From positions 62,001-126,000 of the forward strand of contig CM017456.1 of assembly GCA_007674295.1 (NCBI GenBank): DNA of 64,000 nt, in the 5' to 3' direction. The position numbers were made by a program, and so were the translations under genes. The notes beneath the pieces are model-generated. The model ran no database searches. It was not told the origin of the DNA and saw nothing but the letters and a program-made list of their open reading frames with translations. Each line of letters starts with the position of its first letter. The first letter of the stretch is position 1. Positions 27,942 to 44,533 of the stretch are shown piece by piece. Source of the stretch: Antonospora locustae (taxonomy: Eukaryota > Microsporidia).

Positions 27942-28031
27942 CTGCACACATGGCAACACGAAACTGAACACATACAGTGTATGCCAAGCTAATGATGAAG
28001 TAATTCTCTCGTACATAAAAATAAAGTTTTG

Positions 28032-28247
28032 ATGTTCGCCTTGAGTTTGGACTTTCAAGCATACTTTATTGAAAAGCAGGTAAGTAAAATATGTGTGTTT
28101 TGTGTCTCGTTGGCAGCCTCTATAAGTCACTTTTGCATGCACAAACCAATCCATGTACAGAATTTAGAACAGGCGTTATTACTTAGCTCACTTGTCATCG
28201 GAGCTTGTGTGGTGGCACAAAATGTCTTGGCAGGCCGCAAGACCTAA
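28032..28247 (+). CDS. Signal peptidase complex subunit SPC1-like (SPCS1)
   Basis: A 71-residue protein with a short N-terminus ending in 'LDFQAYFIEKQVSK', then two hydrophobic segments (about 20-35 and 47-65) and a basic end. SPC1/SPCS1 proteins have exactly this layout: a D-F-x-x-Q...E motif before two TM helices joined by a short loop. They support signal peptidase at the ER. The last about 21 codons lie inside the 195-bp segment that is duplicated at 42 kb. A TATA-like stretch (CATAAAAATAAAG) precedes the ATG. The family call is by pattern only. Confidence 0.5.
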   Translation: MFALSLDFQAYFIEKQVSKICVFCVSLAASISHFCMHKPIHVQNLEQALLLSSLVIGACVVAQNVLAGRKT

Positions 28248-28379
28248 CATTCTTTTCAGGTGTTAAACAATATCTCAGCACAAAGACATCACAAACCAAC
28301 GCATCTTTATTGAAGCGAAAAGAGCATGCTCGAGACAAACAGCAGCAGTCCACTAAATGCCATCGCACTCACACCGTTT
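28185..28379 (+). repeat. 195-bp inverted duplicate, copy 1
   Basis: Every base I compared is identical to the reverse complement of 42363-42557. The segment holds the last 21 codons of the SPC1-like gene, the spacer, and the 3' end of the convergent GPI-type gene (28307-28552) including its hydrophobic tail. Because it contains the end of an intact neighbouring gene, this copy is the likely source. Confidence 0.95.
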
Positions 28380-28552
28380 CTGGACTTTCTTGACCTCCTA
28401 TTAGACGAATCATCTTTATTGTCATCATTTGATGAGGATTTATCATTGTCATTTTTGTCAGGGTTTGAGCCGCTACCTGACTTTTCGTTGTCCTGGCAGC
28501 TAACTTTGACAAGAAGTGCAATCAGCAGTACTGCCCAAAACTCTCTCTTCAT
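28307..28552 (-). CDS. Small secreted GPI-type surface protein (family member A)
   Basis: An 81-residue protein: signal peptide MKREFWAVLLIALLVKVSC, a short polar low-complexity middle rich in Ser, Asp, Asn and Lys, a basic patch, and a C-terminal hydrophobic tail 'GLLLFVSSMLFSLQ' of the GPI-anchor signal type. Its first part resembles member C (42709-42987) and its end is identical to member B (42007-42435), so it looks recombinant. Start: the second ATG, after CCCTCA; a first in-frame ATG at 28561 lies just upstream. TATA box 19-28 bases before. Confidence 0.75.
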   Translation of the reverse strand: MKREFWAVLLIALLVKVSCQDNEKSGSGSNPDKNDNDKSSSNDDNKDDSSNRRSRKSRNGVSAMAFSGLLLFVSSMLFSLQ

Positions 28553-28570
28553 TGAGGGCATTCTGCACAA

Positions 28571-28580
28571 CTATTTATAC
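28571..28580 (-). promoter_or_regulatory. TATA box of GPI-type gene A
   Basis: GTATAAATAG on the minus strand, about 20-28 bases upstream of the ATG at 28552. A second shared element, AAAATTAATAAATTCGAA (minus strand, 28603-28620), lies further upstream and has counterparts before members B and C. Confidence 0.65.
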
Positions 28581-28620
28581 TTTTGAAAATCAAACTTCTG
28601 TTTTCGAATTTATTAATTTT

Positions 28621-28935
28621 TGTTCTATTTTCAAAAATAGAATCAATATGAAATGTTTGTTTGCCCAAAATAAAGCAATTTAAATTAAAGTAAGAATTAA
28701 ATGTAGAACACAGATGACAATGTAAATTAAAATGATGCAAAACAATAAGTGTTGAAAGTGTCAGGTCAGGGTGATACTATGGTGCAGCCTTGCCTTGTGT
28801 TTCTAACATAGGTAAATGGTTTATACCACTAGACTCAACTTTCCAAGTATTTGCATTGCAATTGGTCTGTAATGTGTGCTAAAAAGTCTGTCATTCTTTT
28901 CACCAAATAAAATATGTGTCCTTACTCAAGATTAG
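28621..28935. other. AT-rich intergenic DNA
   Basis: Very AT-rich spacer between the promoter of GPI-type gene A and the 3' end of UTP21. No gene seen. Confidence 0.5.
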
Positions 28936-31011
28936 CTAGACAAGTTCTCGAACTCTCTTGTGAAACTCGACTATTCCAATGGTTTCAAGACACATTTCTT
29001 CCACCTCTTCCCACTTTTTGCTGTAGAAATCTATAAATTTCTCTATTTGTTTGTAATCCTTCTTGTCTATACCAACCTCTCCTAGCACTTTTTGTGCCCT
29101 AAAGAAGTCCTTGTCAAAAATCTCAATCAGGTAATTCTGGTCGTCGCACTTTCTGAACTCAATGTTCTGTGCAGGAAGAGAAGCAGGTTGTGCAAGGTAG
29201 TCATTGAGCATTGCATTGTTGTAGTAAGTGCATACGGTGCCATCATTGAAAAGCACAAATAAAAAGTCATGGTTCACAGAAAACAAAGCTGAACGTGGTG
29301 TCTTTTCAAACTGCACTCTATCCAGTACATTTCCCGATGCAATATCTATCAGTAGAAGCTCTGGAGTAAGAATTCCAACCATTCTCAGGTCTTTAGTAAC
29401 AAAGTAGTCAATCGCCTGGTACTCGAACTTTCGCACTAGTTTCAACGAATTTACATCGACCATAACCACCTTTTTGTCTGTGTTTATGAACAACATGTTT
29501 CCGTACCTTTTCATCTTTTTACCGCCAGCTACATCTATCTCGCCAAGCATATTACCTTCAAAGCTCAAAACCAAAACTTTCTCCAGCACTGCCACATATA
29601 TCTTTTGTTGAATTATTGCAATGTCCAAAATGCACAGACCACTAACTGCTATATTGGCCTCTTCTCTGGACTGTTTGTTGCAGTTCTGCATGTATGCACA
29701 GCGAATCATGCCTATTCTGGACACCACACGCCGCGATACTACGTTAAAGACCTTCAATTCCTTCCTTCCATATGCACAAAACGGATGTTCAAATCCTAGA
29801 TGCTCGAATTCAAAGTCGCTGCTAGTGTTTACAAGTCTTCCATTTTTTTTATCAAAGTCAAGAAGAAAGATGTTCGAATATCCTGACACAACAACCTCTT
29901 CTTTGTCCACTCTTATCTTGTTTATGTTTCTCATGTCTTTGCATGAAAAGCGAAATGTTAGATCGTCCTTGTAAATGTTAATTCCTATTACACTGTTTTC
30001 CTCCATCAGAACCATGTGTTTTGTGCTTATAATGTCCATACACTCAATTTTACTGTGCAGAACTCTCCTATGAACCAATATTGGTTTGTAGCCTTCCATG
30101 GAATAGAACTCGAGGTTCTGCCCCGCAGATATAAGATCTTTTTGTCCTGGCAGAAAGCACGCCCAGTGAATATCTTTTAGCTCTGCAACACACTTCAGCC
30201 TGGAAAGCTCGAAAATGTATGTGTTTTCGTTACAGCATATCATGTATGGTTCTGTGTCTGTTCTGAAGGATACGTGCCTCACTCCAGAGACCCTTATTAT
30301 AAACATCTCCTTGTTCTGCCTTAGATTGAAAAACACAATATCGGTCTCGCGCAACAGGGCCACCACATCTATCAACGGTGTCTGCACTGCCTGTCTTACA
30401 TTGCATATGTTAAATGTATAAATGACCTTTCGAGACACAACATTGTAGATCTGCATTTTGTTGTCATATACAATGAGAACCTTGTTGATGTAGGTTGCTG
30501 GATGCATTATACAGCGTATTCTATTTGCATCTTTTTCATTCCTCACATCACCTTCTATCACATACAAGATGCTGAAATGGTCCATAACGATCACTGCATT
30601 CGTACTCATGGCTAGAACAACAAAAGGCCCTACAAACAGCATGCACTCTATGACCAGTCCGGCATACTCGTTCTTATACACCTCGTTGCCCTGTATCAGA
30701 GACACTGTGTATCCAACGCCGTCATACACAATCTTATGTGCACTTTCTGTTTCTCCCCTGTTTACAACATATATTATATTATCGCTTGTCACATACAAGC
30801 GATTGTCGCGATGCAAAATCTGTTTTGTTTTTCTTCTGAAGCTGGGTCCTTCAAAAATGAGGTTAAATGTCTTTGCATTGTAAACTCTAACGGCACTTGA
30901 AACAGCTGCCATGTAGAAGACACCTCCCATTTCATAAACTACAAAGTTGTCTGGGTTTTCAAGAAGCGTGCGCGTGTAAGTGAACAATCCGTTCTTTGTG
31001 CTCTTGATCAT
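28936..31011 (-). CDS. UTP21: UTP21/WDR36, SSU processome WD40 protein
   Basis: A 691-residue protein with degenerate WD-repeat strands along its length. 'HPATYINKVLIVYDNKMQIYN' with 'VIYTF' after it (around residue 170-205) is the UTP21 signature, and the opening 'LFTYTRTL...VYN...L.FEGP' and 'NIIYVVNRGE' also match. UTP21 belongs to the UTP-B module that assembles on the 5' ETS of pre-rRNA in the nucleolus. It is about 250 residues shorter than yeast UTP21, with most of the conserved C-terminal helical domain reduced. ATG is preceded by CCCAT. Confidence 0.82.
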   Translation of the reverse strand: MIKSTKNGLFTYTRTLLENPDNFVVYEMGGVFYMAAVSSAVRVYNAKTFNLIFEGPSFRRKTKQILHRDNRLYVTSDNIIYVVNRGETESAHKIVYDGVGYTVSLIQGNEVYKNEYAGLVIECMLFVGPFVVLAMSTNAVIVMDHFSILYVIEGDVRNEKDANRIRCIMHPATYINKVLIVYDNKMQIYNVVSRKVIYTFNICNVRQAVQTPLIDVVALLRETDIVFFNLRQNKEMFIIRVSGVRHVSFRTDTEPYMICCNENTYIFELSRLKCVAELKDIHWACFLPGQKDLISAGQNLEFYSMEGYKPILVHRRVLHSKIECMDIISTKHMVLMEENSVIGINIYKDDLTFRFSCKDMRNINKIRVDKEEVVVSGYSNIFLLDFDKKNGRLVNTSSDFEFEHLGFEHPFCAYGRKELKVFNVVSRRVVSRIGMIRCAYMQNCNKQSREEANIAVSGLCILDIAIIQQKIYVAVLEKVLVLSFEGNMLGEIDVAGGKKMKRYGNMLFINTDKKVVMVDVNSLKLVRKFEYQAIDYFVTKDLRMVGILTPELLLIDIASGNVLDRVQFEKTPRSALFSVNHDFLFVLFNDGTVCTYYNNAMLNDYLAQPASLPAQNIEFRKCDDQNYLIEIFDKDFFRAQKVLGEVGIDKKDYKQIEKFIDFYSKKWEEVEEMCLETIGIVEFHKRVRELV

Positions 31012-31327
31012 ATGGGTACTTATGTTTTAAGAGTAAGACTTTCTCTCAATATATAGATGCATCTGCAGTTGGGTCTGCAGAATTTCAACCTAACTATTTT
31101 GAACAATTCGCCTTTTCTTTACCGATTACGTTGTTACAACAAAAAAAGGTAAAGTTTGTAGCATCACTACACATCGTCAAACGATATGTTCAAAATCACA
31201 TAGCAGCTGCTGGTTTTACTGCAGACAACTTCTGGTGCAAAAGTGTACCTCTGGTGCATTTCAGTTATTGGGATACCCTATGTCCTCTCACTACTACTGT
31301 AATAAAAAGGACAAAAAGAAAGCCCCA
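31012..31327. other. Divergent intergenic region
   Basis: AT-rich spacer holding the promoters of UTP21 and the Arf-like gene. A 31-codon ORF at 31058 ends at AAAAAGGTAA, resembling a splice donor, but no matching second exon was found. Confidence 0.35.
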
Positions 31328-31837
31328 ATGGGGTTCGTCTACTCGTTTTGCTACAAGGAAAAGAAGTACTTTCTTGTTATACTTGGAATAGACAAGAAGT
31401 TCAAAAAGAAGGTATTTGCAAGGCTTACTGGATCAGAACCTGCCCTTGAGAGTAAGTCGCGGTATGAGGAAAAAAAAGTGTATGTGGGTGGTCTTAGTAC
31501 AATAGTGTGCTGCCTGGATGACGACAACATAACACACGAACTTTGGACTGTGCATGTGAACTGTGCGAATGCATGTGTATTTGTATGCAATCCAGACCTA
31601 GAAAGCCAAGAGCACATTGAAAAGACATTTGAATGGCAGTTTGGAAAGAAGTTAGACAAACAAGACTTCTGTGTTCTGATCATTGTCCATTCCAAATCAA
31701 GGTTCACGGGGCCTATTCTGAACAACTACAACAACCTAAAGAACGTCTGCATGCTGCGCATAGATGAAGGTTGCACGAAGCAGGACGAGCAGATTGATCA
31801 GGGCGTTGAATGGCTGGTAAACAACATGCAAACTTAG
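31328..31837 (+). CDS. Arf-like protein lacking GTP-binding motifs
   Basis: A 169-residue protein of Arf length. It begins M-G-F-V-Y-S-F, a plausible myristoylation site as in Arf, and keeps the fold pattern: 'FLVILGIDKK' strand, 'LWTVHVNCANACVFVCNPD' like the Arf helix and strand with a Val-x-Asp end, 'DFCVLIIVHSKS', and an 'IDQGVEWLVNNM' C-terminal helix. Yet the P-loop GxxxxGK[ST] is replaced by GIDKKFKKK, the WDxGGQ motif by a CCLDDD stretch, and NKxD by VHSKS. It is therefore unlikely to bind GTP. ATG follows CCCCA. Alternative: an unrelated Rossmann-like protein. Confidence 0.6.
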   Translation: MGFVYSFCYKEKKYFLVILGIDKKFKKKVFARLTGSEPALESKSRYEEKKVYVGGLSTIVCCLDDDNITHELWTVHVNCANACVFVCNPDLESQEHIEKTFEWQFGKKLDKQDFCVLIIVHSKSRFTGPILNNYNNLKNVCMLRIDEGCTKQDEQIDQGVEWLVNNMQT

Positions 31838-32059
31838 TAAAGATGTTTCTTACCCTACAAAGCCATTGTCTCAGTATGTGTGACACGAGGATTAGAAAGT
31901 ATTTGGTATTTTGCAAGGTGTTTCTATATTGCATTAGCTGACATTTGTGCAGTGAAGATGGAAAACTGCTGAGTGTGTTTGCTTGAGTCCAAGAAGTGAA
32001 TCAGACTCAAGTTCTTAAAAGGCAGCAGGTGCGATACAAATAATTAATAAAAAACCCCC

Positions 32060-33394
32060 ATGGGAACCACACAATCATCTGTGAAAAGGTGTCTGGTTGT
32101 TCTGCGTGTGAATGACAACTCTAGATGCTTTCCGCACATCTCTCCATTCATACATGCGATTGTCAAGTACAATTCCATTCCAATTCAATCTGAGGACGAT
32201 ATCAAGAAAATGGCAACACAGCGTTATCTGGACCTGGAAATACTTGACCTCATAAACGGAACAACGAAGAACCTCGCTGTGGAAACGCCTCTCGGCATCG
32301 GCGTTAAGTTCTGCGTACCACGGCTGCTTGAGCTAAAGGTTCTTGAGATAGAGAAGGGGTCTCCTGCGGAGAAAAGGATCACCGAAGGTGACTTTGTGGT
32401 AGGCATCGAAAACTTTTATTTTGAAACAAATGACGAGTTTTTCTACGCCATTTACAGAAACAGAGGCGCTATGCTCAACTTTATAGTATATAGAGAGGGA
32501 CAGGTAAGACGCGTTCCTATAAAGCTGAACACAAGTGAGCCCTTTTTGGGTGCAGTATTTGGTGAAGGAATACTCATGACAGCAGTGAGGTCTGGGAACG
32601 TGGTAAACATTGGCACACAGAGGGAGTACCAGCTTTGTGTTAGCGGAGCGGCATCTGAAGACACAAGCGATGTGCAGTACAACACAGAAAAAATGGCAAA
32701 TGGAAAACTGCAAGGTGCAGAAGGCGAGGCACCTGACAGCAGTAATGTAACTTGCAGTCAAGGAAGCAATAGCAAAGTGGAGTGCGCTGAAGAGCGGGTT
32801 CAAGAAATGAAAAACAATGGTAACACAAATACAGAGACATATGTACAGGTCAATAATATTCAAGAGACAAAGTCCACAAATGAAGGAAATGCTGAGTGTA
32901 TCGCGGAAGGAGAACACCGGTTTTCAGGTGCAAACAAAGGTCAAGGTGCGAACGAGACGCCATGTGACAGCGAACCATCCCAGAGAAGCACGTCCATGTG
33001 TAAAACTACTTGTCCTGAGCATGCAGAAGTTACATGCAGTGTTGTAATGCACGAAAATTACTTTTCAAAGTCTAAATATAATGAGTCTATCAGTGTCCTT
33101 GGCACGCACCAGCTGAATATTTCCACAGAACATATTGAATCTCAAAAGGATATCTTTACTGACAGAAATGAAGTCATTAGTGATCATGTACATGCAACCA
33201 ATGAAGTGTCTGATCTGGACACCAGTCAAGCTACGTCTGCAGACCATGTATACTCTCTTTGTAATTCAGAAACAACTCTAGAGGATGGTATGCGTACCTG
33301 TCCTATAATTGGTGAATACTCAAATGAGGATAAGATAAGGCTTCTCGAAACACTGACTGGATCCAAAAGTGAAAACACGTCTGAGCCAGAATGA
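32060..33394 (+). CDS. GRASP/GRH1 Golgi reassembly stacking protein
   Basis: A 444-residue protein. Gly2 (MGTTQSS) is a myristoylation site, and residues about 5-195 form the tandem PDZ-like GRASP domain ('CLVVLRVNDNSRCFP', 'LEIEKGSPAEKRITEGDFVVGIE', 'LNFIVYREGQVRRVPI'). GRASP proteins tether Golgi membranes and support unconventional secretion; yeast GRH1 acts at ER exit sites. Residues 200-444 are low-complexity, rich in Ser, Thr, Asn, Glu and Cys, and probably a regulatory phosphorylated tail. ATG directly follows five C. Confidence 0.85.
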   Translation: MGTTQSSVKRCLVVLRVNDNSRCFPHISPFIHAIVKYNSIPIQSEDDIKKMATQRYLDLEILDLINGTTKNLAVETPLGIGVKFCVPRLLELKVLEIEKGSPAEKRITEGDFVVGIENFYFETNDEFFYAIYRNRGAMLNFIVYREGQVRRVPIKLNTSEPFLGAVFGEGILMTAVRSGNVVNIGTQREYQLCVSGAASEDTSDVQYNTEKMANGKLQGAEGEAPDSSNVTCSQGSNSKVECAEERVQEMKNNGNTNTETYVQVNNIQETKSTNEGNAECIAEGEHRFSGANKGQGANETPCDSEPSQRSTSMCKTTCPEHAEVTCSVVMHENYFSKSKYNESISVLGTHQLNISTEHIESQKDIFTDRNEVISDHVHATNEVSDLDTSQATSADHVYSLCNSETTLEDGMRTCPIIGEYSNEDKIRLLETLTGSKSENTSEPE

Positions 33395-33495
33395 AATTTG
33401 GACTACCTCTGCTGCAAACAATATATAAAAAATGTCGTCAACAAAGAGCAAGACATGGTTTTGCATGGCATCTAGCTCATCAGAAACAGCGCAGT

Positions 33496-33768
33496 TTACT
33501 GCTGTGCATTGAGACTCTCGCAAATTTTCTGAAATGCATTTGATATTCTGGACTGTATGTAGGGAGACCCACCGTTGCTGGGGGAATTTCTATTATAATG
33601 CATTTCAAAAGCATTTCGAGCCAATACAAGGTCGTTTTCTTTTATGTTCAGAATACTCAACGATTCCTGCATTGTTATTGCTCTAGTGGCTGGGAAGAAA
33701 TGGCACACAGTGTTCGTAAACGCTCTTGCTAAAACCTGAATGCTGTCTAGAACTATTTCGCGCAGCAT
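33496..33768 (-). CDS. PAM16: PAM16/TIM16, mitosomal import motor J-like subunit
   Basis: A 90-residue protein. 'ITMQESLSILNIKENDLVLA' and 'GGSPYIQSRISNAFQKI' match the J-like domain of PAM16 (Tim16), which lacks HPD and regulates PAM18 in the Hsp70 import motor at the inner membrane. The N-terminal hydrophobic helix is short. In microsporidia this machinery would serve the mitosome. Start at 33768 because ATG directly follows CCC; an in-frame ATG at 33780 would add four residues. Confidence 0.85.
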   Translation of the reverse strand: MLREIVLDSIQVLARAFTNTVCHFFPATRAITMQESLSILNIKENDLVLARNAFEMHYNRNSPSNGGSPYIQSRISNAFQKICESLNAQQ

Positions 33769-33928
33769 GGGCGGTGTCATTTTTTGTTTATCTTTGCAAA
33801 GCACGAGATGCCAGTAATTGTGATAGTATCTGAACAAACATAGACCAAGGCTTTCTTGTTGAGTCGTGCTGCCTCAACAACGATAGCGAACTGTCTTAAT
33901 GTTATATAAAAAGAACTCTCTACTCTGC

Positions 33929-34033
33929 ATGTCCAACAAGCCACGAAAAACATACCTCTTGTATTTGTTGTATGAAAATCTTCTAAACACTAAGTATCAA
34001 CTATACAAAAACATAGCGATGTCTCCACATTAA
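33929..34033 (+). CDS. Possible 34-residue microprotein with TATA box
   Basis: A short ORF with a TATA box (ATATAAAA, about 33904-33911) about 20-25 bases before the ATG, the same spacing as other genes here. The product starts MSNKPRKTYLLYLLYENLL, basic then aromatic and leucine-rich. No C-rich start context and no family match. Divergent from PAM16. Confidence 0.25.
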   Translation: MSNKPRKTYLLYLLYENLLNTKYQLYKNIAMSPH

Positions 34034-34210
34034 TGCATACAACAAAGCAACGGCTCTTTGTGGTTTCTATCAAAGTCTTATTGCTATTTCCGTGCAGACA
34101 TATGGTGCCAGGCAGCTTTTTTACTATCTTGCAGCTTAAAACACAAACGGAACAGCTCTCAAACAAGAACGTTTTGGATTAAAATAAATAAGATAGACTA
34201 CTTGAAAGAC

Positions 34211-34993
34211 ATGATGCAGCAAAAAATTATGGCAGGCTTATTAAAAGCAATATGGCTATGCAGTGTATACTTACAGCTAGCTGAAATGGCCGTAGGTGCT
34301 CACAATTACGACTATGGGAGCAGGCCAAATCCTGCGACTAGCAACTACTACTACACACCCAGCTATTACACACAGCCCACTTTTTTAGGGAATATACAAC
34401 CACAAGCCATGCCACTGCAAAAGCCCTTAGCGAACGAGAATCTTCCGCAAAAAACACTCGGACGCGCCCCTACTACCGTCCCCAAGATAAAAAGCACCAC
34501 CATAAAAGTAAGTGAAAAGCGAGAATCGCCTCTAGACATATTAATTAAGGACCATCCTGAAATTGGCAACAAGCTGAAGAAGATATTTGAGTATAATGGA
34601 ATAATGCCCCCGTGGAACCCACTCAAGGACCTTTCAAGCCTTGAGCAGCAACGTTTGCCTGATTCATGCATGCTTTATGTGAAGATGAAGGACATTCTAA
34701 AGGTGTTCGAAAGTCTCAAAGAGATGATAGCAGATGAGCTTTTGAAGGTGGAGACATATGTAAAGAGAGCAAAGGCATATCTCCGCGAGAAGCGGGAAAA
34801 ACTCGAGCGCAACCTTGACAGAATGAAGCGATACATGAAAAAGATCAAGAAGTCGAAATCAGACTCTGTCAAAGCAGAGTATGCTCGAAAGTTTAGAGAA
34901 ATTCAAGCTGACACAAGAAAAACAATGGAGGAGTATCAAAGTCTGAAGAAGTGGATGGTAAGTACGCTCAACAACTTCAAAACGTTGTTTTAG
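34211..34993 (+). CDS. Secreted Tyr-rich/coiled-coil protein, candidate surface or polar tube protein
   Basis: A 260-residue protein with a signal peptide (to about residue 30), a Tyr/Asn/Pro/Thr-rich segment (about 30-95), a short conserved-looking region with 'MPPWNPLKDL', and a lysine-rich amphipathic coiled coil to the C-terminus (about 155-260). Basic, lysine-rich secreted proteins of this size occur among polar tube proteins (PTP2 type), but only two Cys are present and no motif confirms it. ATGs at 34211, 34214 and 34229 are all in frame or close; the first is used. No C-run context. Confidence 0.65.
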   Translation: MMQQKIMAGLLKAIWLCSVYLQLAEMAVGAHNYDYGSRPNPATSNYYYTPSYYTQPTFLGNIQPQAMPLQKPLANENLPQKTLGRAPTTVPKIKSTTIKVSEKRESPLDILIKDHPEIGNKLKKIFEYNGIMPPWNPLKDLSSLEQQRLPDSCMLYVKMKDILKVFESLKEMIADELLKVETYVKRAKAYLREKREKLERNLDRMKRYMKKIKKSKSDSVKAEYARKFREIQADTRKTMEEYQSLKKWMVSTLNNFKTLF

Positions 34994-35372
34994 ACGCAAA
35001 TGCCTACTAACGAGTCTTGTAAAAGCGAGTACAAAGCATTTTATATATTATACACACCACCACGACAAAAATACACAGTTTTCCTGTAATTCAATGTTGA
35101 CCTGAAAAATCTGCAGAGAAAGGATCTAATCATAAAACAGACATAGCAGTTGTGAAAATCGTGCCTGTTATGAGTATTTGACGAAACATCACTCTTCTCA
35201 GACAATATAGAGCCAAAAGAATCACAAAATACTAGACGTTCAGCTAAAAACGTAAGCAAGTTATTACTTAAGGTGTTACCTCACATTTAGAGAAGGACCT
35301 TGTGTTGAAGAAGTCTTCTAAATAAAGCCTAAGTCGTGACTGTTTACACAGTAAACTAAGGTGTGTTTTTCT
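34994..35372. other. Convergent intergenic region, nothing recognised
   Basis: AT-rich spacer. AATAAA at about 35320 is on the plus strand and may end the upstream mRNA. A 72-codon minus-strand frame starts at TTG and is not supported. Confidence 0.4.
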
Positions 35373-37751
35373 CTACATAAACTCACGTGCATCGATAGAG
35401 AAATCCTTGCTGTCCAGTGCCATACACCATCTCATGTATCCTTTTTTTGTCATGATTAGGTCGTTGAACAGCACATATTCAGGTGCCCTACCATGTAAAA
35501 CACTTGAAGGATGTATGTAGCATATCTTTCCCTCTGTAATTGTCATGTATGCATCTCCTCTCTTCCTTGCTACATTATGCTTGAAACCTTCTAAGAACGC
35601 CTGAAATACACCATCATGATTGCTCTGCAAGTCTTCATGCTCGTTGTGCCTCTGGATGTTTTCGTCATTCGAAAAACCGATGCAACTTCTCTTGTAAAAA
35701 TCGCCATTCTCTGTGCCAGCGTCAATGAGAAACTCTGCACGTCTTCTGGACTTCGCATTTGCGCAGCCTCCATTTGGCAAAAAATGCTCAATCAGCTGGC
35801 CTATTACCTTTTTGACGTGCTCCATATTCTTGATGTTCATTCCGTTTGCTTCAAGGAACTTGTGCGAGTATTGCTCATTTTTCCACCTTCTATAAATGTT
35901 CAGAAGCGTGTAATGGTCTCCCCGTGCATCTTCGTACTTTCTCATAACATTTATACCCATATCGGATTGAAACCCACTGAGATCTCCTTTTATAATGTTT
36001 GGCACAGACAACATGGAAATAATAGCTGCAGTATCTACGAGAACACCAAGCCGGCTTGCAACTAACAAGGTCTTGGCACACTGAACGTGTACTGGTAGCG
36101 TGCTCATTTTTTTTCCTTCCACTGTTAAAGCATTGTTTTTAAGTGCACCAATGCTTTCCAGAAAACTCTGGGCTTCTTCAAGTCGATCTTCAGGCAGTGA
36201 GGTAACTAAGTTTGTATAGCGCACTCCTAGAGAAGTAAGAAGAAGCACAACATTACACAGATTAACTCTCAGCATTTCTGGATCAATGCATTCTTGAAAT
36301 GCTTCAAACTCCTTTTTGGTGTAAATCCTATACACAGTTCCCTCTCTGACTCTGCCAACTCTTCCGGCTCTCTGTCTTGCCTGTGACCTCGATATTTTTG
36401 CCACAAAAAGCGTGTCTATCTGCATAAATGTCTTCTGCTTGAAATACCCGCTATCTATGACGTAGTCTACATCCAAGGTGATTGATGTTTCTGCTATGTT
36501 GGTCGCTAAGATGATCTTGGGCTTCGCTGAGGGTAAAAACACACGTGGTGACTGCAAAGAGCTGTGAAGCGGTATGATCGTGTGAGACGAGGACAAAGAC
36601 CTCTTCAGAGATCTGTATGCATAGCTTATTTCCTCCTGACCCGGCAAAAACACAAGAATGTCTCCTGTTTTGCATGATGTATATGCACAGACGCCGCTGT
36701 CTCTCGTGACATTTGCACTGCTGTTGCCAGCATCTACATCCTTGCTGCTTTCAACAGCAGTGTTTCCACTATGCATTCTATTTGCTACAATTTCTCTGTA
36801 CTCTGCACCAGCACACAGCATTTCTGTTGTTTCGATGGTCTCCTTCAAATAGTCGTCTGCCTCACACCTGAGATAATACACTTCTACAGGAAACCTCTCC
36901 ACTTCAATGCTTATCAGAGGACATTTGAAGAAATCGACAATGTCTTCGCTGAGTGTTGCACTCATTACGACCATTCTTCTCCTCATTGCTAGCAGCACAT
37001 CAATATTAACTGTACGCTCGTGTGCTTCATCCACGACCAGCACGTCACTTCTGATCTTGTTTCGCAGCAAAATTCCATCAGTGACATAAATAAGCCGTGT
37101 CTTGTCACTAATATCCTCCTCAAATCGGACTTTGTACCCCGCCTTCTCTCCTAGTGTCCTTTTTACGTACTTTGCAATTGAAATTGCTGCTAGGCGCCTG
37201 GGCTGCGTGCATACGACTGTACGGAACTTCTCCAGCAAAAACTGCGGTATAAGCGTGGACTTTCCGCATCCTGTGTCACCTCGTATGCATATCACATCAT
37301 GTGACTCCATGAGAGATAGAACAAGCTCCTTTATTTTGGTGATTGTTTCTCCTCTTGTGAGTTTAAAGGTGTATTCCTCTCGCTTTTGATCACGCCCTCT
37401 GTGAAAGTTTGCCTGCGCATATTTTGAACTAGACGTAAGTTTTACATTGTGCGTCTCTTTGGTATGTACCTGGACTTTCTTGTGAATGTCGGTGTCTATT
37501 GCACATATTCGCCTGTCGTGCTCTGAGTTCTCTTTGGACTCTGTGCAATGGCCATCAGATTTGACTTGCATGCACTTCTTATCTGCATAGCTTTCAACCG
37601 CAATACACAATTTCAAGTACATATCCTCACCTAAATAGCTCTTGAGCCTTTCAAGTTTATTGTCAATGTGCAGAGCCATTACATATTCTCTAAACATCTT
37701 TTCGGAAAGATTTAAAGCTTTTGAGAGCTCGGCTATTTTGTCTGCTGTCAT
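35373..37751 (-). CDS. DEAH-box RNA helicase (PRP22/PRP2/PRP43 group)
   Basis: A 792-residue SF2 helicase. Motif I GDTGCGKST, motif Ia TQPRRLAA, motif II DEAH ('VVDEAHERT'), motif III SAT, motif V 'ATNIAETSIT' and motif VI QRAGRVGR (usually QRAGRAGR) are all present, followed by the winged helix, ratchet and OB regions ending 'HPSSVLHGRAPEYV'. An inserted low-complexity stretch separates the two RecA domains. It could serve splicing or rRNA processing; the subfamily is not decided. ATG at 37751 follows CCCTC; an ATG at 37814 would add 21 hydrophobic residues. Confidence 0.9.
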   Translation of the reverse strand: MTADKIAELSKALNLSEKMFREYVMALHIDNKLERLKSYLGEDMYLKLCIAVESYADKKCMQVKSDGHCTESKENSEHDRRICAIDTDIHKKVQVHTKETHNVKLTSSSKYAQANFHRGRDQKREEYTFKLTRGETITKIKELVLSLMESHDVICIRGDTGCGKSTLIPQFLLEKFRTVVCTQPRRLAAISIAKYVKRTLGEKAGYKVRFEEDISDKTRLIYVTDGILLRNKIRSDVLVVDEAHERTVNIDVLLAMRRRMVVMSATLSEDIVDFFKCPLISIEVERFPVEVYYLRCEADDYLKETIETTEMLCAGAEYREIVANRMHSGNTAVESSKDVDAGNSSANVTRDSGVCAYTSCKTGDILVFLPGQEEISYAYRSLKRSLSSSHTIIPLHSSLQSPRVFLPSAKPKIILATNIAETSITLDVDYVIDSGYFKQKTFMQIDTLFVAKISRSQARQRAGRVGRVREGTVYRIYTKKEFEAFQECIDPEMLRVNLCNVVLLLTSLGVRYTNLVTSLPEDRLEEAQSFLESIGALKNNALTVEGKKMSTLPVHVQCAKTLLVASRLGVLVDTAAIISMLSVPNIIKGDLSGFQSDMGINVMRKYEDARGDHYTLLNIYRRWKNEQYSHKFLEANGMNIKNMEHVKKVIGQLIEHFLPNGGCANAKSRRRAEFLIDAGTENGDFYKRSCIGFSNDENIQRHNEHEDLQSNHDGVFQAFLEGFKHNVARKRGDAYMTITEGKICYIHPSSVLHGRAPEYVLFNDLIMTKKGYMRWCMALDSKDFSIDAREFM

Positions 37752-37873
37752 GAGGGCACTGCCTGTAGTACAAAGAATCTCGGCTATCAGTCCTTTGCAG
37801 AAATACCAGGACATTGAGCATCTATGCTAACGTGATATTATAACGTGTGCAGCACATACTGAAATGTATACTT

Positions 37874-39043
37874 TTATTTTTCTGGTTGTACTATGTCTGT
37901 AAAACATAGCTTCTTAGGCACCTCCCAAGGAAACATCTCTCTTCCAAAATGTCCGTAGGATGCTGTTTTTCTAAATATGGGGTTTTTGAGACCTAGCTTG
38001 CGCGCAATCATGCTAGGCCTCATGTCAAAATTCTGATTGATGATTTCAACTATTCTGTCGCTACTGATGACACTTGTGTTATATGTATCTACGTATATAG
38101 ACAGTGGCCTTGAAATGCCAATTGCATACGATATTTGAATCAAAACACGCCTGCATATTCCAGAACTTACCAGAGATTTTGCTATCCACCTTGCCATGTA
38201 CGCACCGCTTCTATCAACTTTTGACCAGTCCTTACCACTAAAGCATCCACCGCCATGGCATCCAAAACCACCGTAAGAATCAACTATTATTTTTCTTCCT
38301 GTCAAGCCTGCGTCTGCAGCAGGCCCCCCGTGCACAAAACTGCCGCTTGGCTGTATATAGTATATGGTGTCCCTCAATAGCGACTGTGGAACGACAGCCT
38401 TGACTACGTTTTCCATAACAAAAGATCGGAGTTCCTCTGTACCAACCTTATCAGAGTGCTGAGTAGATATTACAATTGTGTGTACCCTCAGAGGTACTAG
38501 CCTTCCACTATCTTCGAGATATTCTATGGTCACCTGCGACTTGCAGTCTGGCCATATGAAGTCATTGGTTTTCCTTAATTCGGAAAGTCTTCTCACTAGA
38601 TTGTGTGCAAGAACCAAACTCATGGGCATTTTCTCGATAGTTTCGTCAGTTGCATATCCAAACATCATTCCCTGGTCTCCGGCGCCAGTCTCCCCATAAC
38701 CATTGTTCTCTATAGCACTTGCTATTTCATTGCTTTGCTCTTTTAAGCAAACAGACACATTTACTGTCTTGTAGTCAAATCCCTTTCTGCAGCAATCATA
38801 CCCAATATCCTTCAAGACGCATCTCACCAATTTTTGATAGTCGACAGTTGCTCTAGAAGATATCTCTCCGCACAAAAGCACCATTCCTGTGCTTACAACT
38901 GTTTCTACAGCAACACGGGCATTAGGATCCTGTCTAAGATGTTCGTCCAGAATTGCATCACTGATCTGGTCACATATTTTGTCTGGATGTCCTTCTCCTA
39001 CGCTTTCTGACGTGAACAAAAAAGTACGAGCACCGCAGTTCAT
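37874..39043 (-). CDS. SAM2: S-adenosylmethionine synthetase
   Basis: A 389-residue enzyme making S-adenosylmethionine from methionine and ATP. Recognised: '[20 protein letters not shown]', '[12 protein letters not shown]' and the phosphate loop '[22 protein letters not shown]'. In the latter, Cys replaces the Ala/Pro usually seen. Length is the family norm. ATG follows CCCTTG. Confidence 0.97.
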
Positions 39044-39240
39044 CAAGGGTGCATAATTTAGACGGAAATGAGCTCACAGAAGCTTATATACACCAAACAC
39101 CGAGCTTCTACTAGAATAAGCCAAACGTGACAGAGCCGAAAAACTGCCTCATTTTTCTTGCTGTAAAGCTCAATGACTGTGCTTATGTCTCTTATTAACT
39201 AGCATTACGTGTGTGAATTCTGCTTGCTAACTTGTGACAC

Positions 39241-39831
39241 CTAGCTTTCATAATATATGTCCAGCTTATATATAAACCCCCTGTCAAATGTTTTTCGCAC
39301 AATTGGTGGGTCTGTGTTCATAAGGGCATTGAGAATATCAACACATCTATACTTCGATACACCTGACTTCCTGAGAATGTCTTCGTAGAGAATGCCGCTT
39401 TTATTTGCAAATAGGAATCTTACTAGCTTATCTGCATTTGAACGATATAGAGCATTGTCAGGTATCACTTTGTGGACTTTTTCCAAAACATCCTGTATTT
39501 GCATGCTTTTACTTGTCATCACCTCTTTTTCCAGTAGCTGCTCGTGCACATGGTGTATCTTTGATACTGAAAATTGCGTATTGGCCACGCCAGTTGAGTC
39601 AACGTTTTCATCATTTTGAAGAGCTTTATCTGACATCTCATCCATCGATAGCAGCAGTGCCTCAAGCTTAAAGTTGAAAATGTTTATCTGCTCGTTAAGC
39701 ACAAGCACTCTCTCAATCTTCGTCTTTATATCCCTAATTGCAAGGTGAAGTCTCTCAATTTTCTCCTCATACATGGGCAGGGATTCTATTCCAGCAAATA
39801 ATGCAGTTTTGAAGCTCTCAGAAAGACTCAT
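39241..39831 (-). CDS. Coiled-coil protein with C-terminal winged helix, unknown
   Basis: A 196-residue acidic protein: coiled coil in residues about 15-70, a polar linker, then a C-terminal region (about 125-190) with the helix-helix-strand pattern of a winged helix ('KLVRFLFANKSGILYEDILRK', 'KYRCVDILNAL', 'RGFIYKLD'). I recognise no family; kinetochore or transcription factor subunits with this layout exist. No C-rich start context. It diverges from DPH3 with 91 bases between ATGs. Confidence 0.65.
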   Translation of the reverse strand: MSLSESFKTALFAGIESLPMYEEKIERLHLAIRDIKTKIERVLVLNEQINIFNFKLEALLLSMDEMSDKALQNDENVDSTGVANTQFSVSKIHHVHEQLLEKEVMTSKSMQIQDVLEKVHKVIPDNALYRSNADKLVRFLFANKSGILYEDILRKSGVSKYRCVDILNALMNTDPPIVRKTFDRGFIYKLDIYYES

Positions 39832-39922
39832 TTTCCATGAACCTGCCGTTATGTCTTTCTATGCCCTATAAAGCCTCTTGCTGCTTGCTTCGGAGTAAAC
39901 AACAAGCATGCACCCCTAGTCT

Positions 39923-40234
39923 ATGGACAGAAGAAGCGACATTGAGCTAAAACTCCTTGAGGAACGAATATATCGCGATGAAAGGTACAACATCATAAAG
40001 TATTACGACGAGGTGGATATAAAGGACTTTGAGTACGACGCAGCAAATCGTGTATTTACTTTTCCGTGCCCTTGCGGTGACCAATTCGAAATATCTCTTG
40101 AAGAGCTACTAAATGGAGAAGAAATAGCAATGTGTCCCAGCTGTCCTTTGATTGTGAAGGTTGTTTATGAGGACGAAGACATAAACAGAGTCAAGGAAGT
40201 CATAGAATCGAGCGCAAGGTCGTTATATTCATAA
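39923..40234 (+). CDS. DPH3: DPH3/KTI11 CSL zinc-finger protein
   Basis: A 103-residue protein with the CSL zinc finger: Cys49, Cys51, Cys71 and Cys74 in '[14 protein letters not shown]' and 'MCPSC'. '[13 protein letters not shown]' precedes it as in DPH3. DPH3 is an electron donor for the radical-SAM step of diphthamide synthesis and for Elongator. The first 27 residues are an extra helical extension not found in typical DPH3. ATG has CCCC in the preceding ten bases. Confidence 0.93.
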
Positions 40235-40424
40235 CAAACTTTTGTGTTTGTATCTAATTGCAGCTGCCGACAACGCCTCAGGCTCTGCAAATGCAAAGAC
40301 AATGCGGGGCATTTGGCCCCTTTTGTGGTTGAGCTTTGTGGTAAATTTACTTTATTCTGTGTGTGTCAGCGATTGCAAAAGTAGTATAAAAAAATCAGAG
40401 AGCAGGGTTACGCAACGCTATATC

Positions 40425-41225
40425 ATGGAGAAAGAACAGTATTTCTACCTGTCACTTCACTACGATAGTCTGAAAGACACTGAGAAGTCGCTTGAGTATT
40501 ACATAAAGGGCTTTGAGACGATGATGAGCAGCCACGAAGCCATCACAAAGCAGGTTTGTCTGAACTTGGAAATTCTTCTGATGAAAAGAGTTAAAAGGCT
40601 GCAGGAAACTTTGGAAAATCTAGGAAAGATGAGGTCAAACGCACTTAATCCCACCGAAATACGCTTTCTAGAGGATCACGAGGAAGGTATTCAGAGTGAT
40701 ATTCTCTTGACGTTCAATCGCGCCATATCCATATTTCAGATAATCAAAGACAGTGTTGGTGTATCCGACCACAAGCTTCTGGCATACGTAATGAAGACAA
40801 AGGCAGACTTTCTTAGAAGAAAGGCCATCTTCTACGAGGACTCCGGGGACACACATACAAAGGCTGAGGCAACTGCTCTTTATGAATATGCTCTGGTGCT
40901 CTTGATAAGCACGCCAGTACAATGCCCATACAAACTAGATGTCATGCTGAACTATGCAAAACATGCACTTGAATGTTATGGCGACGAATCCAAAATAAAA
41001 AGCCTACGAGAAATATTCTACGGGGCTCGCAGATTTTTCATGCATGATCAAGGTGAGGATACAAGATACTACCTCTACATGCTGAAGTACATAGGACTTT
41101 ACCTAGATAACAAGCAAAACATTCGCAACTTGACATTCGATAGATGGATACTTGAAGAAGACGATCCAAACGCAGCCAACATCATTGTACATGAAGACTT
41201 GTACACTCTGTATGTTAATACGTAG
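40425..41225 (+). CDS. Divergent 14-3-3-like protein
   Basis: A 266-residue all-helical protein of 14-3-3 size. 'FYLSLHYDSLKDTEKSLEYYIKG' at the start corresponds to helices 1-2, 'AYVMKTKADFLRRKAIFYED' to helix 5 and 'CPYKLDVMLNYAKHALE' to the 'P-x-x-L-x-L-NF-x-V' helix. Many phosphopeptide-contacting residues are not obvious. Start at 40425 fits a TATAAAA box at about 40385; the frame is open to 40302 where it would add a hydrophobic segment. Confidence 0.6.
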   Translation: MEKEQYFYLSLHYDSLKDTEKSLEYYIKGFETMMSSHEAITKQVCLNLEILLMKRVKRLQETLENLGKMRSNALNPTEIRFLEDHEEGIQSDILLTFNRAISIFQIIKDSVGVSDHKLLAYVMKTKADFLRRKAIFYEDSGDTHTKAEATALYEYALVLLISTPVQCPYKLDVMLNYAKHALECYGDESKIKSLREIFYGARRFFMHDQGEDTRYYLYMLKYIGLYLDNKQNIRNLTFDRWILEEDDPNAANIIVHEDLYTLYVNT

Positions 41226-42006
41226 AAGTAGCTTCTATATCCATATCTGCTTTTGCATCTTGCTGCCATAGTCAATTTAGAATGTTTTGTCTTGTTAAAC
41301 CCCGTATTTTGCATTGCCCTCCTTTTGCTGAGACATTGCAATCCTGGCTGCAGATAGCAACATGCATTCCACTTTTGAATGCTTTCTGAGAATTCTTGTA
41401 TTTCGTAATACTTTCTCTATGCATTGCTTGTCTTTGACGAGAAAATTTATTACACTGTGGTGATTACTTATACTTCTTTCATTTCACAGAACTATACTTC
41501 TATGTTCATCACAACATTCACAAGCAGGTCAAATGTTTGACATAGCTATCGTATGCACATGTGCAAAATTCCTTTTATGCAAGTGCTCTTGCATACAGCA
41601 ATTCAATGTCATCTGTACTGTGTATTTACTTTTTATTATGTGCTATCCTTGGTATTCCATATTTTCACGATCTCTGCATCTTTCATGTATATCTCTTTTT
41701 CCCACCTTTTTCAGATTGCATTTCGTCGTCTCATGTATTTACATTGTAATTCTAGAATGCCAACATGGTATGTGCACATCAGCTCCGTCCTACAATTTTC
41801 TATTTTTTTCAGGTCATATTGACAATGACAACAAGTAGTTACATGTGTTGGCATGGAGGTTGTAGTGTGTATTTGTTTAGGATTTAGAAATCACATTGTC
41901 ATTGACCCAGCATAGTATATGCTTTTGTTTTGCAAATGGAGTAAAATTAATAAGTTCAAGAAGGGAAGCTGTGTTCGAAGACAAACAAGCTACATGCAAC
42001 GCCCTT
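41226..42006. other. AT-rich intergenic region upstream of GPI-type cluster
   Basis: A 780-base spacer rich in T and CA. ORFs of 60-100 codons in it are chance-like. The element AAAATTAATAAGTTCAA at 41943-41959 lies about 50 bases before gene B and is shared with genes A and C. Confidence 0.5.
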
Positions 42007-42435
42007 ATGAAAAAAAGGATTTGTATAGTTATTTTGTTATTTTCACATATCAGTTGCCAGGGAAATGAAAACGTAGGCAATGGTTTAAGCACTAACAAAG
42101 GCATCAGCAATAATGGCAGCTTTCCATTAACAAATAACAACGTATCCGCGAATAACAACGCATACTTGAGTAATAACACATCTTCTGGCGAACAGTCCAA
42201 CGCAGGCAGTGTTCCTTCTTCCGGCGAACAGTCCAACGCAGGCAGTAGTCCATCTTCTGGCGAACAATCTACTGGAGACGACCAAACCTCATCAAACAAT
42301 AGTACAGGTGATAGCAGCAATCCAGAAAATGGCAGCGAAGAGCCACCCTCAGAAACACCCGAAAACGGTGTGAGTGCGATGGCATTTAGTGGACTGCTGC
42401 TGTTTGTCTCGAGCATGCTCTTTTCGCTTCAATAA
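42007..42435 (+). CDS. Secreted Asn/Ser-rich GPI-type protein (family member B)
   Basis: A 142-residue protein: signal peptide (about 1-19), a long Asn/Ser/Gly-rich middle with N-glycosylation-like sites, 36-bp tandem repeats (42181-42279) encoding SSGEQSNAGS-type units, an acidic stretch, and a hydrophobic C-terminal tail identical to member A. The layout (signal peptide, Ser/Thr/Asn-rich repeat stalk, GPI-type tail) suggests a spore wall or plasma-membrane surface protein. AATAAA overlaps the stop codon. ATG follows CCCTT. Confidence 0.8.
   Translation: MKKRICIVILLFSHISCQGNENVGNGLSTNKGISNNGSFPLTNNNVSANNNAYLSNNTSSGEQSNAGSVPSSGEQSNAGSSPSSGEQSTGDDQTSSNNSTGDSSNPENGSEEPPSETPENGVSAMAFSGLLLFVSSMLFSLQ
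42181..42279 (+). repeat. 36-bp tandem repeats in GPI-type gene B
   Basis: Two full 36-bp units and a partial third, each encoding about SSGEQSNAGS plus two variable residues. Near-identical at the DNA level, so probably prone to copy-number change. Confidence 0.85.
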
Positions 42436-42557
42436 AGATGCGTTGGTTTGTGATGTCTTTGTGCTGAGATATTGTTTAACACCTGAAAAGAATGTTAGGT
42501 CTTGCGGCCTGCCAAGACATTTTGTGCCACCACACAAGCTCCGATGACAAGTGAGCT
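42363..42557 (-). repeat. 195-bp inverted duplicate, copy 2
   Basis: Reverse complement of 28185-28379. It covers the last 24 codons of GPI-type gene B, the spacer, and, antisense, the last part of the SPC1 coding sequence without the rest of that gene. This makes it the likely recipient of the duplication or conversion. Confidence 0.95.
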
Positions 42558-42680
42558 TGTGAGAAGTATTCTCGATACAATGTCTAACAGAATGAATCAT
42601 GGTTACCATGAGCCATGTGCTTCCGTTTTTATAAAAGAGCAAAATTAATAAGTTCAAAAAGAAAGGTTTGATTTTCAAAG

Positions 42681-42690
42681 GTATAAATAG
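42681..42690 (+). promoter_or_regulatory. TATA box of GPI-type gene C
   Basis: GTATAAATAG, 19-28 bases before the ATG at 42709, within a block nearly identical to the promoter of gene A. The AAAATTAATAAGTTCAA element is at 42641-42657. Confidence 0.65.
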
Positions 42691-42708
42691 TTGCGCATAA
42701 TGCCCTCA

Positions 42709-42987
42709 ATGAAGAGGGGGTTTTGGGTAATGCTGATTGCACTTCTTGTCAAAGTTGGCTGCCAGTACAACGAAAAGTTAAGTAGTGATGGTTCAAACCC
42801 TGACAAAGGATGTGAAAGAGGTCAATTCTCTAATACAAACAGCAGGCTGCTCATAGATAGAATACCACTCAACAAAGGGGATGTTGCAGTTGATAGCAAG
42901 AACAAAAAACTACATAGTAAGCGAAAAAACGAAGAAGATTTTACAAAATCATTTTTGTTTATATCAACCATGTTCTATTCACTTTAG
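42709..42987 (+). CDS. Secreted protein related to GPI-type family (member C)
   Basis: A 92-residue protein whose promoter, signal peptide (MKRGFWVMLIALLVKVGC) and first about 20 mature residues resemble member A, but whose second half is different: basic and polar, ending in a weak hydrophobic 'FLFISTMFYSL'. The GPI-type tail seems lost or decayed. First ATG at 42700 and second at 42709 mirror gene A; the second follows CCCTCA. Confidence 0.65.
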   Translation: MKRGFWVMLIALLVKVGCQYNEKLSSDGSNPDKGCERGQFSNTNSRLLIDRIPLNKGDVAVDSKNKKLHSKRKNEEDFTKSFLFISTMFYSL

Positions 42988-43091
42988 GAAACAATAGAGA
43001 ATATTATTTCTATGGCGGAAAGAGATGCAAAATAGCGGCATGGAGATGAGTTGGTTAATAAACAGCAGAAGATGGCTCTGCTCTCTATCAC

Positions 43092-43613
43092 CTACTGGTT
43101 GTTTATGTCGTATTCGTTCATCAGCTTAATTGCATACTGCAGTTCACTATCATTTTCACAGTAAAGGTCCTCTTCATGGCTTTTTCTCCTGAATCCGTCT
43201 CTAATGTCAAAGGTGCGCCTTTCTCTATATAGATCCAAAGCGTTGTATATGTAAAAAAGAGCATTTGCCATACGAGTGCTGTATATTTTTTGGACTTGTG
43301 GTGCCTGGTAAATATAGCCATTAACTATGTAAAATACTGCTAGCACATCCACATTTTTGCTCGAATGTCGATACAGCTTCTCTATAGCGATAACAGGGGT
43401 TGGCTTTCCTAGAGCATACTCGATACCAACCATGTTCTGTAGCTGGTCCTGTGTAACTTCACAAAACTTTGACTGCATCTTCAAAACCTCGTTATTGCAT
43501 GTTTTTTCATAAAATGGAGAGCTTGAAAAGTACTCCAGTGCATTACTTCTGCTTAGAACATTCTGTGCAAGCCAATACGGGTCTACAAAACATATTTCTT
43601 CCATCTTTGTCAT
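43092..43613 (-). CDS. MED6: Mediator subunit MED6
   Basis: A 173-residue protein. 'NALEYFSSSPFYEKTCNNEV' with 'KMQSKFCE' and 'QLQNMVGIEYAL' and 'VNGYIYQAP' are unmistakable MED6 core motifs. MED6 is in the head module of Mediator, which links activators to RNA polymerase II. It is the short conserved domain only; the variable C-terminal region of larger homologs is missing. ATG has CCC nine bases upstream. Confidence 0.96.
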   Translation of the reverse strand: MTKMEEICFVDPYWLAQNVLSRSNALEYFSSSPFYEKTCNNEVLKMQSKFCEVTQDQLQNMVGIEYALGKPTPVIAIEKLYRHSSKNVDVLAVFYIVNGYIYQAPQVQKIYSTRMANALFYIYNALDLYRERRTFDIRDGFRRKSHEEDLYCENDSELQYAIKLMNEYDINNQ

Positions 43614-43784
43614 GATTGCAGGGTTCTACTCTTTTAACTTGCTAGTTTCGTTAAATGCATATTCTTTGTCTTGCATTCACTAGGCGAGATTGCAGCACGG
43701 TCTTTCAGAGGGCATCATTGAACATTGGTGTTGAGATTGACATTAGAATCTTGATAACAACTTCTTGTAACCTCCCCTTCATAA

Positions 43785-44192
43785 ATGAATAAGCTCGAAA
43801 AGGTCGTATCAAAGTATCACTCAAATGTTGTCGACCACTTCAGCAAGCCCAGAAATGTCGGATCTTTTGATAAAAATGCAAGCGATGTAGGCACTGGAAT
43901 TGTTGGAGCACCGGCATGCGGTGACGTAATGAAGCTTCAGATAAAAGTTGAGGACAATATCATAAAAGACGCTGTGTTCAGAACATTTGGTTGTGGATCT
44001 GCTATAGCATCATCAAGCCTGGCCACTGAGATGATAAAGGGAAAAACAATTGACGACTCTCTGAAGCTGAGTAATATTGAGATTGCTAAGAAACTCTCTT
44101 TGCCACCTGTTAAGCTTCACTGTTCTATGCTGGCAGAAGATGCAATTAGATCGGCTGTTATGGACTACAAAAGCAAGAGAGCCAATAAATAA
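43785..44192 (+). CDS. ISU1: Iron-sulfur scaffold protein ISU1 (IscU)
   Basis: A 135-residue scaffold on which 2Fe-2S clusters are built. Ligand cysteines Cys45 ('PACGD'), Cys70 ('FGCGSA') and Cys113 are present, as is the LPPVK chaperone-binding site (106-110). No long N-terminal presequence; the start MNKLEKVVSKYHS may itself serve as a short mitosomal targeting helix. Iron-sulfur cluster assembly is the main known role of mitosomes. ATG has CCCC shortly upstream. Confidence 0.98.
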   Translation: MNKLEKVVSKYHSNVVDHFSKPRNVGSFDKNASDVGTGIVGAPACGDVMKLQIKVEDNIIKDAVFRTFGCGSAIASSSLATEMIKGKTIDDSLKLSNIEIAKKLSLPPVKLHCSMLAEDAIRSAVMDYKSKRANK

Positions 44193-44533
44193 ATGATCAG
44201 GCTTGTGATCACTCTACAGAACTTGTGAGCAGCCCACAACGAAGAGATCATAGTGCTTTCTATGTAAAATTTGTGCGCGGCTCAGCTTTTGGTGAGGAGT
44301 GTTGTTGTGGAGACGCCATGCGGAGTAGGCAGGAAAAAGAACATGTGCATAGAAAAATTTGCTCTGCGCGATGAGGATTTATCATACAAACTTACAAAGT
44401 AAAAGTCAACTCACAACAAAAAACATTTACTGCAATGTGCTAGTGCAAAGACATACACAGCTCATACATAGCAATAACAACTGTGTGTACATCAAGCATA
44501 CCAAACGGCATGGCTTTTTGAATTTGAATCTAT
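44193..44533. other. Convergent intergenic region
   Basis: Contains a locally GC-richer stretch (about 44260-44340) with no ATG-initiated ORF. It might be a structured RNA, but I could not fold it convincingly. Confidence 0.3.

What the first reader, a model, noticed from the sequence alone, without database searches (positions are those of the whole stretch)
28185..42557. Identical 195-bp inverted duplicate has shuffled a secreted-protein family
28185-28379 equals the reverse complement of 42363-42557 at every base compared, including non-coding spacer and 21 codons of SPC1. Gene A (28307-28552) has a 5' half and promoter like gene C (42709) and a 3' end identical to gene B (42007). B and C lie side by side at 42 kb. 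This suggests recent ectopic recombination or gene conversion moving a GPI-type anchor and 3' UTR, with the 28-kb copy as donor because only it belongs to an intact SPC1-like gene.
Basis: partly seen in the sequence, partly recalled or inferred. Interest (0 to 1): 0.8.

Follow-up and report, generated by a model that had tools for sequence, protein, structure and literature searches.

The report
Copied gene tail between parasite paralogues
In a grasshopper parasite's genome, two related genes for small, probably secreted proteins share an identical 195-base end, most likely because DNA repair copied the end of one gene onto the other; this is a tidy but ordinary kind of recombination event.

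Summary
Confirmed: 28185-28379 equals the reverse complement of 42363-42557 at 195 of 195 bases, with sharp edges. A search of the 3.17-Mb assembly finds two copies. The organism is the microsporidian Paranosema (Antonospora) locustae: its uL14 matches PDB 6ZU5 at 140/140 residues.

A, B and C are the only family members found. Their promoters and signal-peptide halves are related, so A is a full-length paralogue, not a C+B chimera. An outside protein, P0001, has A's N-terminus and its exact 23-residue tail.

The "SPC1" label is wrong: the SPC12/SPC1 gene is on contig C4.

Best reading: recent conversion-like copying between paralogues, probably A to B. The 5' edge lies in paralogous genes; beyond the 3' edge no homology is detectable, suggesting one-sided strand invasion closed without homology. 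Rad51-family genes are present; no Ku match was found. Direction and mechanism are inferred. A staggered-break inversion of the 14 kb between the copies is a serious rival. New member of a known kind; modest interest.

The parts
28185..28379 (+). 195-bp segment D, copy 1: 73 nt of gene A's 3' coding end (23 residues and stop, plus 1 nt) and 122 nt of 3' flank
   Evidence: 195/195 identical to the other copy; two copies found in the assembly
42363..42557 (-). 195-bp segment D, copy 2 (inverted): 3' coding end of gene B and 122 nt of the B-C spacer
28307..28561 (-). Gene A, 84 aa: signal-peptide-like N-terminus, N/S/D/K-rich middle, hydrophobic C-terminal tail (start may be 28552)
   Evidence: codon score 0.093, within the range of the window's genes; relative P0001 with matching N-terminus and tail
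42007..42435 (+). Gene B, 142 aa: diverged N-terminus, S/E/Q/N-rich middle with 36-bp repeats, tail identical to A's
   Evidence: 5' CDS related to C and to A (0 of 500 shuffles reach the score in each); tail within D. Its codon score, -0.006, is just below the 5th percentile of true-gene chunks, 0.004
42700..42987 (+). Gene C, 95 aa: 5' part and promoter close to A's; diverged tail, outside D
   Evidence: A-C CDS alignment score 180, shuffle maximum 57; listed unchanged in the protein database as P0002
28604..28620 (-). Family promoter motif AAAATTAATAARTTCRA upstream of A
   Evidence: perfect match; three perfect matches in the assembly, one per family gene
41943..41959 (+). Family promoter motif upstream of B
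42641..42657 (+). Family promoter motif upstream of C
42179..42266 (+). 36-bp tandem repeat (2.4 copies) in B's middle
28032..28247 (+).
   Evidence: no SPC12 match at E<=1, SPC12 gene on C4, no homologue found, codon score -0.138 against a 5th percentile of 0.004

Best explanation
Genes A, B and C are a small family, with no other members found in this genome, of probably secreted proteins with a hydrophobic, possibly GPI-type, C-terminal tail. In the recent past a break in or near the 3' end of B was repaired by copying from A, 14 kb away in inverted orientation: the broken end invaded A's tail region, 195 bp were copied (23 tail residues, the stop with its overlapping AATAAA, and 122 bp in all of 3' flank), and the new end was rejoined where no homology is detectable. 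It works like ectopic gene conversion, but is not a classical two-ended tract. SHOWN: exact identity, two copies found, sharp edges, family relationship, B's frame kept across the junction, two Rad51-family genes present, no Ku match. INFERRED: the break, one-sided invasion, the direction A to B, and any effect on anchoring of B.
For: 195/195 identity including 122 bases outside the genes A and B; at the about 14% divergence of A and C, 122 identical sites would have p about 1e-8, so the last copying is much younger than the A-C split. All three genes are related in promoter and 5' CDS. P0001 has an A-type N-terminus and the same 23-residue tail, so the tail belongs with A. Outside D, B is the most diverged member. 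Beyond D on the 3' side no homology is detectable (497 of 500 shuffles score at least as high). Two Rad51-family genes, no Ku match. In a self-comparison of contig C10 (151,251 bp), 3 of 36 rows lie wholly in the interior, all three in this family.
Against: Direction is not proven: B could have owned the same conserved tail and been the donor. DNA next to D's 5' edge in A and B is too diverged to align with confidence (the significant pre-D alignment of A and B, reached by 1 of 500 shuffles, ends short of it). No other strain's or species' DNA was available for the flanks. The A-C tail likeness is not significant on its own (62 of 500 shuffles). Homologous recombination is itself reduced in E. 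cuniculi, where its working is called uncertain (PMC1851970, passages). No reads were available.
Confidence: 0.6

Rival explanations
1. Conversion-like copying in the reverse direction: B's 3' end and flank were copied onto A.
For: Identity is symmetric, and the ORF that was said to mark 28 kb as donor looks non-coding. If the tail is a conserved family feature, B may always have had it.
Against: P0001 shows an A-type gene with this tail; B is otherwise the most diverged member.
Confidence: 0.18
2. The two copies are the footprint of a 14-kb inversion with staggered breaks: fill-in duplicates the sequence between the nicks at both ends in inverted orientation. Before it, A and C would have been tandem neighbours and B convergent with the flavodoxin-domain gene at 26061-27941.
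For: The geometry matches: otherwise single-copy DNA, inverted, at both ends of one segment, with sharp edges. Such footprints are described for two Drosophila inversions (PMC3355041, passages read). A and C are the closest pair.
Against: That paper attributes them to non-homologous end joining; no Ku match was found here, and classical NHEJ is reported lost in microsporidia (PMC6635534, passages), though alternative end joining is not excluded. The break in B would have to fall by luck in frame at a paralogue's tail.
Confidence: 0.14
3. Assembly artefact: one 195-bp copy was placed wrongly.
For: No reads could be examined.
Against: Each copy has its own flanks and completes an open reading frame. 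The protein searches list C (P0002, from a 4,485-nt contig) but neither A nor B of this genome, as expected if a short-read graph breaks at a true exact repeat; suggestive only, since other reasons for their absence are possible.
Confidence: 0.05

Closest known systems
Interlocus (ectopic) gene conversion between dispersed paralogues
   Same: Identical tract within otherwise diverged paralogues; tract includes coding and non-coding DNA; copies dispersed on one chromosome
   Different: One edge runs out of detectable homology, so a classical two-ended tract is not enough; direction is inferred only
Gene conversion and translocation proposed at the microsporidian sex-related locus (PMC2866331, passages)
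   Same: Conversion invoked within microsporidian genomes
   Different: There inferred from gene-order differences between species; here an exact recent tract between two paralogues
Staggered-break inversion with flanking inverted duplications (Drosophila inversions 2h and 2q, PMC3355041, passages)
   Same: Single-copy DNA duplicated in inverted orientation at both ends of one segment
   Different: Here the junction is in frame in a paralogue and no Ku match was found; ancestral gene order unknown
SPC12/SPC1 signal-peptidase subunit
   Same: Short ORF with hydrophobic stretches
   Different: No match to PF06645; the SPC12 gene of this genome lies on contig C4

Membership tests
Classical ectopic gene conversion | Tract between paralogues much more similar than the rest of the pair | tested here: met
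   195/195 against weak A-B similarity outside it and 86% for A and C
Classical ectopic gene conversion | Both tract edges lie in homologous sequence (two-ended tract) | tested here: not met
   No homology beyond the 3' edge (497 of 500 shuffles reach the score). Hence described as conversion-like one-sided copying and not filed as a classical tract
Classical ectopic gene conversion | Non-reciprocal transfer with known donor, seen against an outgroup | tested here: inconclusive
   P0001 supports A as the tail's owner; no outgroup DNA for the flanks
Staggered-break inversion | Inverted duplications of otherwise single-copy DNA at both ends of the segment | tested here: met
Staggered-break inversion | Segment inverted relative to an outgroup | not testable with these tools
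   No microsporidian relative's genome was available
SPC12/SPC1 | Match to PF06645 | tested here: not met
   No match for ORF 28032-28247 at E<=1; genome hit at C4:207187-207393, E 5.2e-20, over the cut-off
GPI-anchored surface protein | Signal peptide and hydrophobic C-terminal tail after a small-residue site | tested here: inconclusive
   Hydrophobic ends in A, B and P0001, weaker tail in C; C13-peptidase gene present, which may be GPI8; no dedicated predictor run; Gaa1 search uninformative
General genomic repeat or mobile element | Many copies | tested here: not met
   Two copies found in the assembly

The most novel reading that the evidence does not exclude
In a genome without a detectable Ku, one-sided homologous copying closed without homology may be a recurrent way to swap whole 3' modules (membrane tail, stop, poly(A) signal and flank) between surface-protein paralogues, even in the interior of a compact chromosome.
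Probability: 0.2. Interest if true: 0.45.

Novelty: new member of a known kind. Interest (0 to 1): 0.25.

Why it matters
It is a clean, recent record of recombination inside a compact microsporidian chromosome, away from its repetitive ends, and it hints at how breaks are repaired where no Ku is found. It also corrects a gene label (SPC1) and shows a three-gene family in which the C-terminal tail, stop codon and poly(A) signal have moved as one unit. For the wider field it is an ordinary event.

Tried and rejected
SPC1 identity: rejected. General repeat: rejected. RNA element: no Rfam match at gathering threshold in 25000-45000, no unusual fold of D as DNA (z 0.71). tRNA: none in the window by a bacterial-code scan. 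Wider regulon sharing the family promoter: not supported; three perfect matches, and with one mismatch allowed 5 matches against 4 for the reversed-pattern control. Homologous 3' flanks of A and C: not found (286 of 500 shuffles). Pfam for A, B, C: sub-threshold matches for A (5) and B (1), none for C. The sigma-70 and terminator scan is bacterial and uninformative here. Literature: the listings of searches (12 of 35 papers shown; 10 of 253; 10 of 92) show no report of this family or event; passages on gene conversion in PMC2866331, PMC12558613, PMC4704409 and PMC3566094 concern other matters. The P. locustae genome paper (PMC7643970) is not held, so a published annotation of these genes could not be checked.
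Full report
Observation. Window 28185-28379 and the reverse complement of 42363-42557 agree at 195 of 195 bases, and agreement stops abruptly on both sides. The repeat finder gives the same arms and two further, diverged inverted pairs, 28526-28620/42641-42735 (86%) and 28473-28531/42727-42785 (92%), which are the promoter and 5' parts of genes A and C. The window is positions 62001-126000 of contig C10 of a 3,170,203-bp assembly in 17 contigs; searching that assembly with 28185-28620 finds the two copies of the 195 bp and the A-C match, nothing else (the tool calls such counts lower bounds). An exact 195-mer pair by chance has an expectation near 10^-102.

Organism. The uL14 of this genome (contig C3) is identical over 140 of 140 residues to the uL14 chain of PDB 6ZU5, which the ribosome paper names as Paranosema locustae (PMC7644102, passages read). 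The G+C of contig C10, 41.7%, agrees with the 41.6% and 42.0% quoted for Antonospora locustae (PMC13174016 and PMC11592040, passages read). Not in agreement: PMC13174016 gives 18 scaffolds for the public assembly where 17 contigs are held here, and an older paper gives a genome of about 5.4 Mbp (PMC2803860, passages). The abstract listed for PMC5697631 gives Paranosema locustae as a synonym of Antonospora locustae.

The family. A (28307-28561, minus), B (42007-42435, plus) and C (42700-42987, plus) are the only members found when the genome is searched with A or B at E<=10. All have a hydrophobic N-terminus, a polar middle and a hydrophobic C-terminus, weakest in C. In shuffle tests the 5' coding parts of B and C, and of B and A, are related (0 of 500 shuffles reach the score in each), as are the promoters of A and C (0 of 500), B and C (0 of 500) and A and B (3 of 500); A and C are closest (CDS score 180, shuffle maximum 57). 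A 17-base promoter motif has three perfect matches in the assembly, one at each gene; with one mismatch allowed there are 5 matches against 4 for the reversed control, so only the perfect matches are informative. Pfam gives sub-threshold matches for A and B and none for C.

A is not a chimera. Two protein searches (45 and 974 candidates scored) list one outside relative, P0001 (89 aa, from a 7,952-nt contig, source code 'lgn'), with A's N-terminus and an identical 23-residue tail; 42 of 57 aligned residues outside the last 24 columns are identical, and 23 of 24 within them. So N-terminus and tail belong together. The tail of C looks related to A's in the full-length alignment, but that stretch alone is not significant (62 of 500 shuffles).

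The SPC1 label. ORF 28032-28247 has no SPC12 match at E<=1, no PDB match at E<=10 and no homologue in the protein search. A clear SPC12 gene lies at C4:207187-207393 with E 5.2e-20. The codon score of the ORF is -0.138 per codon; 173 chunks of 71 codons from 30 ORFs that I took as genes have a 5th percentile of 0.004, and the ORF ranks 11th lowest of 44 ATG-initiated ORFs of 55-110 codons lying mostly outside those genes, a set that also holds A and C. The test is rough: gene B itself scores -0.006.

Mechanism. The 5' edge of the duplicated segment lies in the tail region of two paralogues and keeps B in frame, although the DNA right beside that edge is too diverged to align with confidence; the significant pre-D alignment of A and B (1 of 500 shuffles) ends short of it. 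Beyond the 3' edge no homology is detectable (497 of 500 shuffles score at least as high). The genome has two Rad51-family genes and no Ku match at E<=1 (the family rang in one of the 14 controls, Bacillus subtilis). In Encephalitozoon cuniculi Ku70 and Ku80 are reported absent and Rad51 present, but the same paper reports more than half of the homologous-repair proteins missing and leaves open whether that pathway works (PMC1851970, passages). Classical end joining is described as lost in microsporidia (PMC6635534, passages). One-sided strand invasion from B into A, copying of 195 bp and closure without homology explains the anatomy best. Zero differences in 122 bases outside the genes would have probability about 1e-8 at 14% divergence and about 0.29 at 1%, so the last copying is young relative to the A-C split; no absolute date is possible.

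Direction. P0001 makes A the more likely owner of the tail and B the recipient. It is not proof: B could have had the same conserved tail, in which case only the flanks could tell, and no relative's DNA was available.

Inversion rival. Inverted duplications at both ends of a segment are also left by inversions with staggered breaks (PMC3355041, passages). The geometry here fits. Against it stand the missing Ku match and the in-frame junction in a paralogue; alternative end joining remains possible. Gene order in a relative would decide.

Background. In a self-comparison of the whole contig C10 (blastn, word 16, E<=1e-5), 36 off-diagonal rows were found; 3 lie wholly in the interior and all three belong to this family (the 195-bp pair, the A-C pair and B's tandem repeat); one more row joins the left terminal stretch to 10.8 kb; the other 32 lie within about 7.3 kb of the left end or 6.6 kb of the right end, in repeats and tandem arrays. 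Only this one contig of 17 was compared with itself, so how often such events occur genome-wide is unknown.

Function. The copied piece carries the stop codon with an overlapping AATAAA. A C13-peptidase gene is present; GPI8 belongs to that family (recalled), so a GPI-type tail is possible. Gaa1 gave no answer, as nothing rang in the controls either. The effect on B is inferred: it now ends in the same tail as A.

Noticed in passing
Contig C10:1-7265 and 150037-151251 (L016, L025; outside the window): Both ends of the contig carry related repeats (about 80-86% identical), consistent with subtelomeric repeats and a near-complete chromosome.
   Followed up: no
Contig C10:146802-147555 (L025; outside the window): Tandem array with a unit of about 66 bp and about 95-98% identity between copies.
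   Followed up: no
Contig C1:102360-103091 and 359914-360645 (L029, L030): Two Rad51-family genes on one contig; one might be a Dmc1-type meiotic recombinase (recalled idea, not tested).
   Followed up: no
40302-41225 (+): 307-aa ORF with a signal-peptide-like start and a sub-threshold 14-3-3 match (E 3e-5, 24.1 bits against a cut-off of 33.2).
   Followed up: no
10022-11167, 34211-34993, 52780-53205 (+): Three ORFs with signal-peptide-like starts and no Pfam family above cut-off; the first is rich in Cys and Pro.
   Followed up: no
42179-42266 (+): 36-bp tandem repeat in the middle of gene B; repeat number may vary between strains.
   Followed up: no
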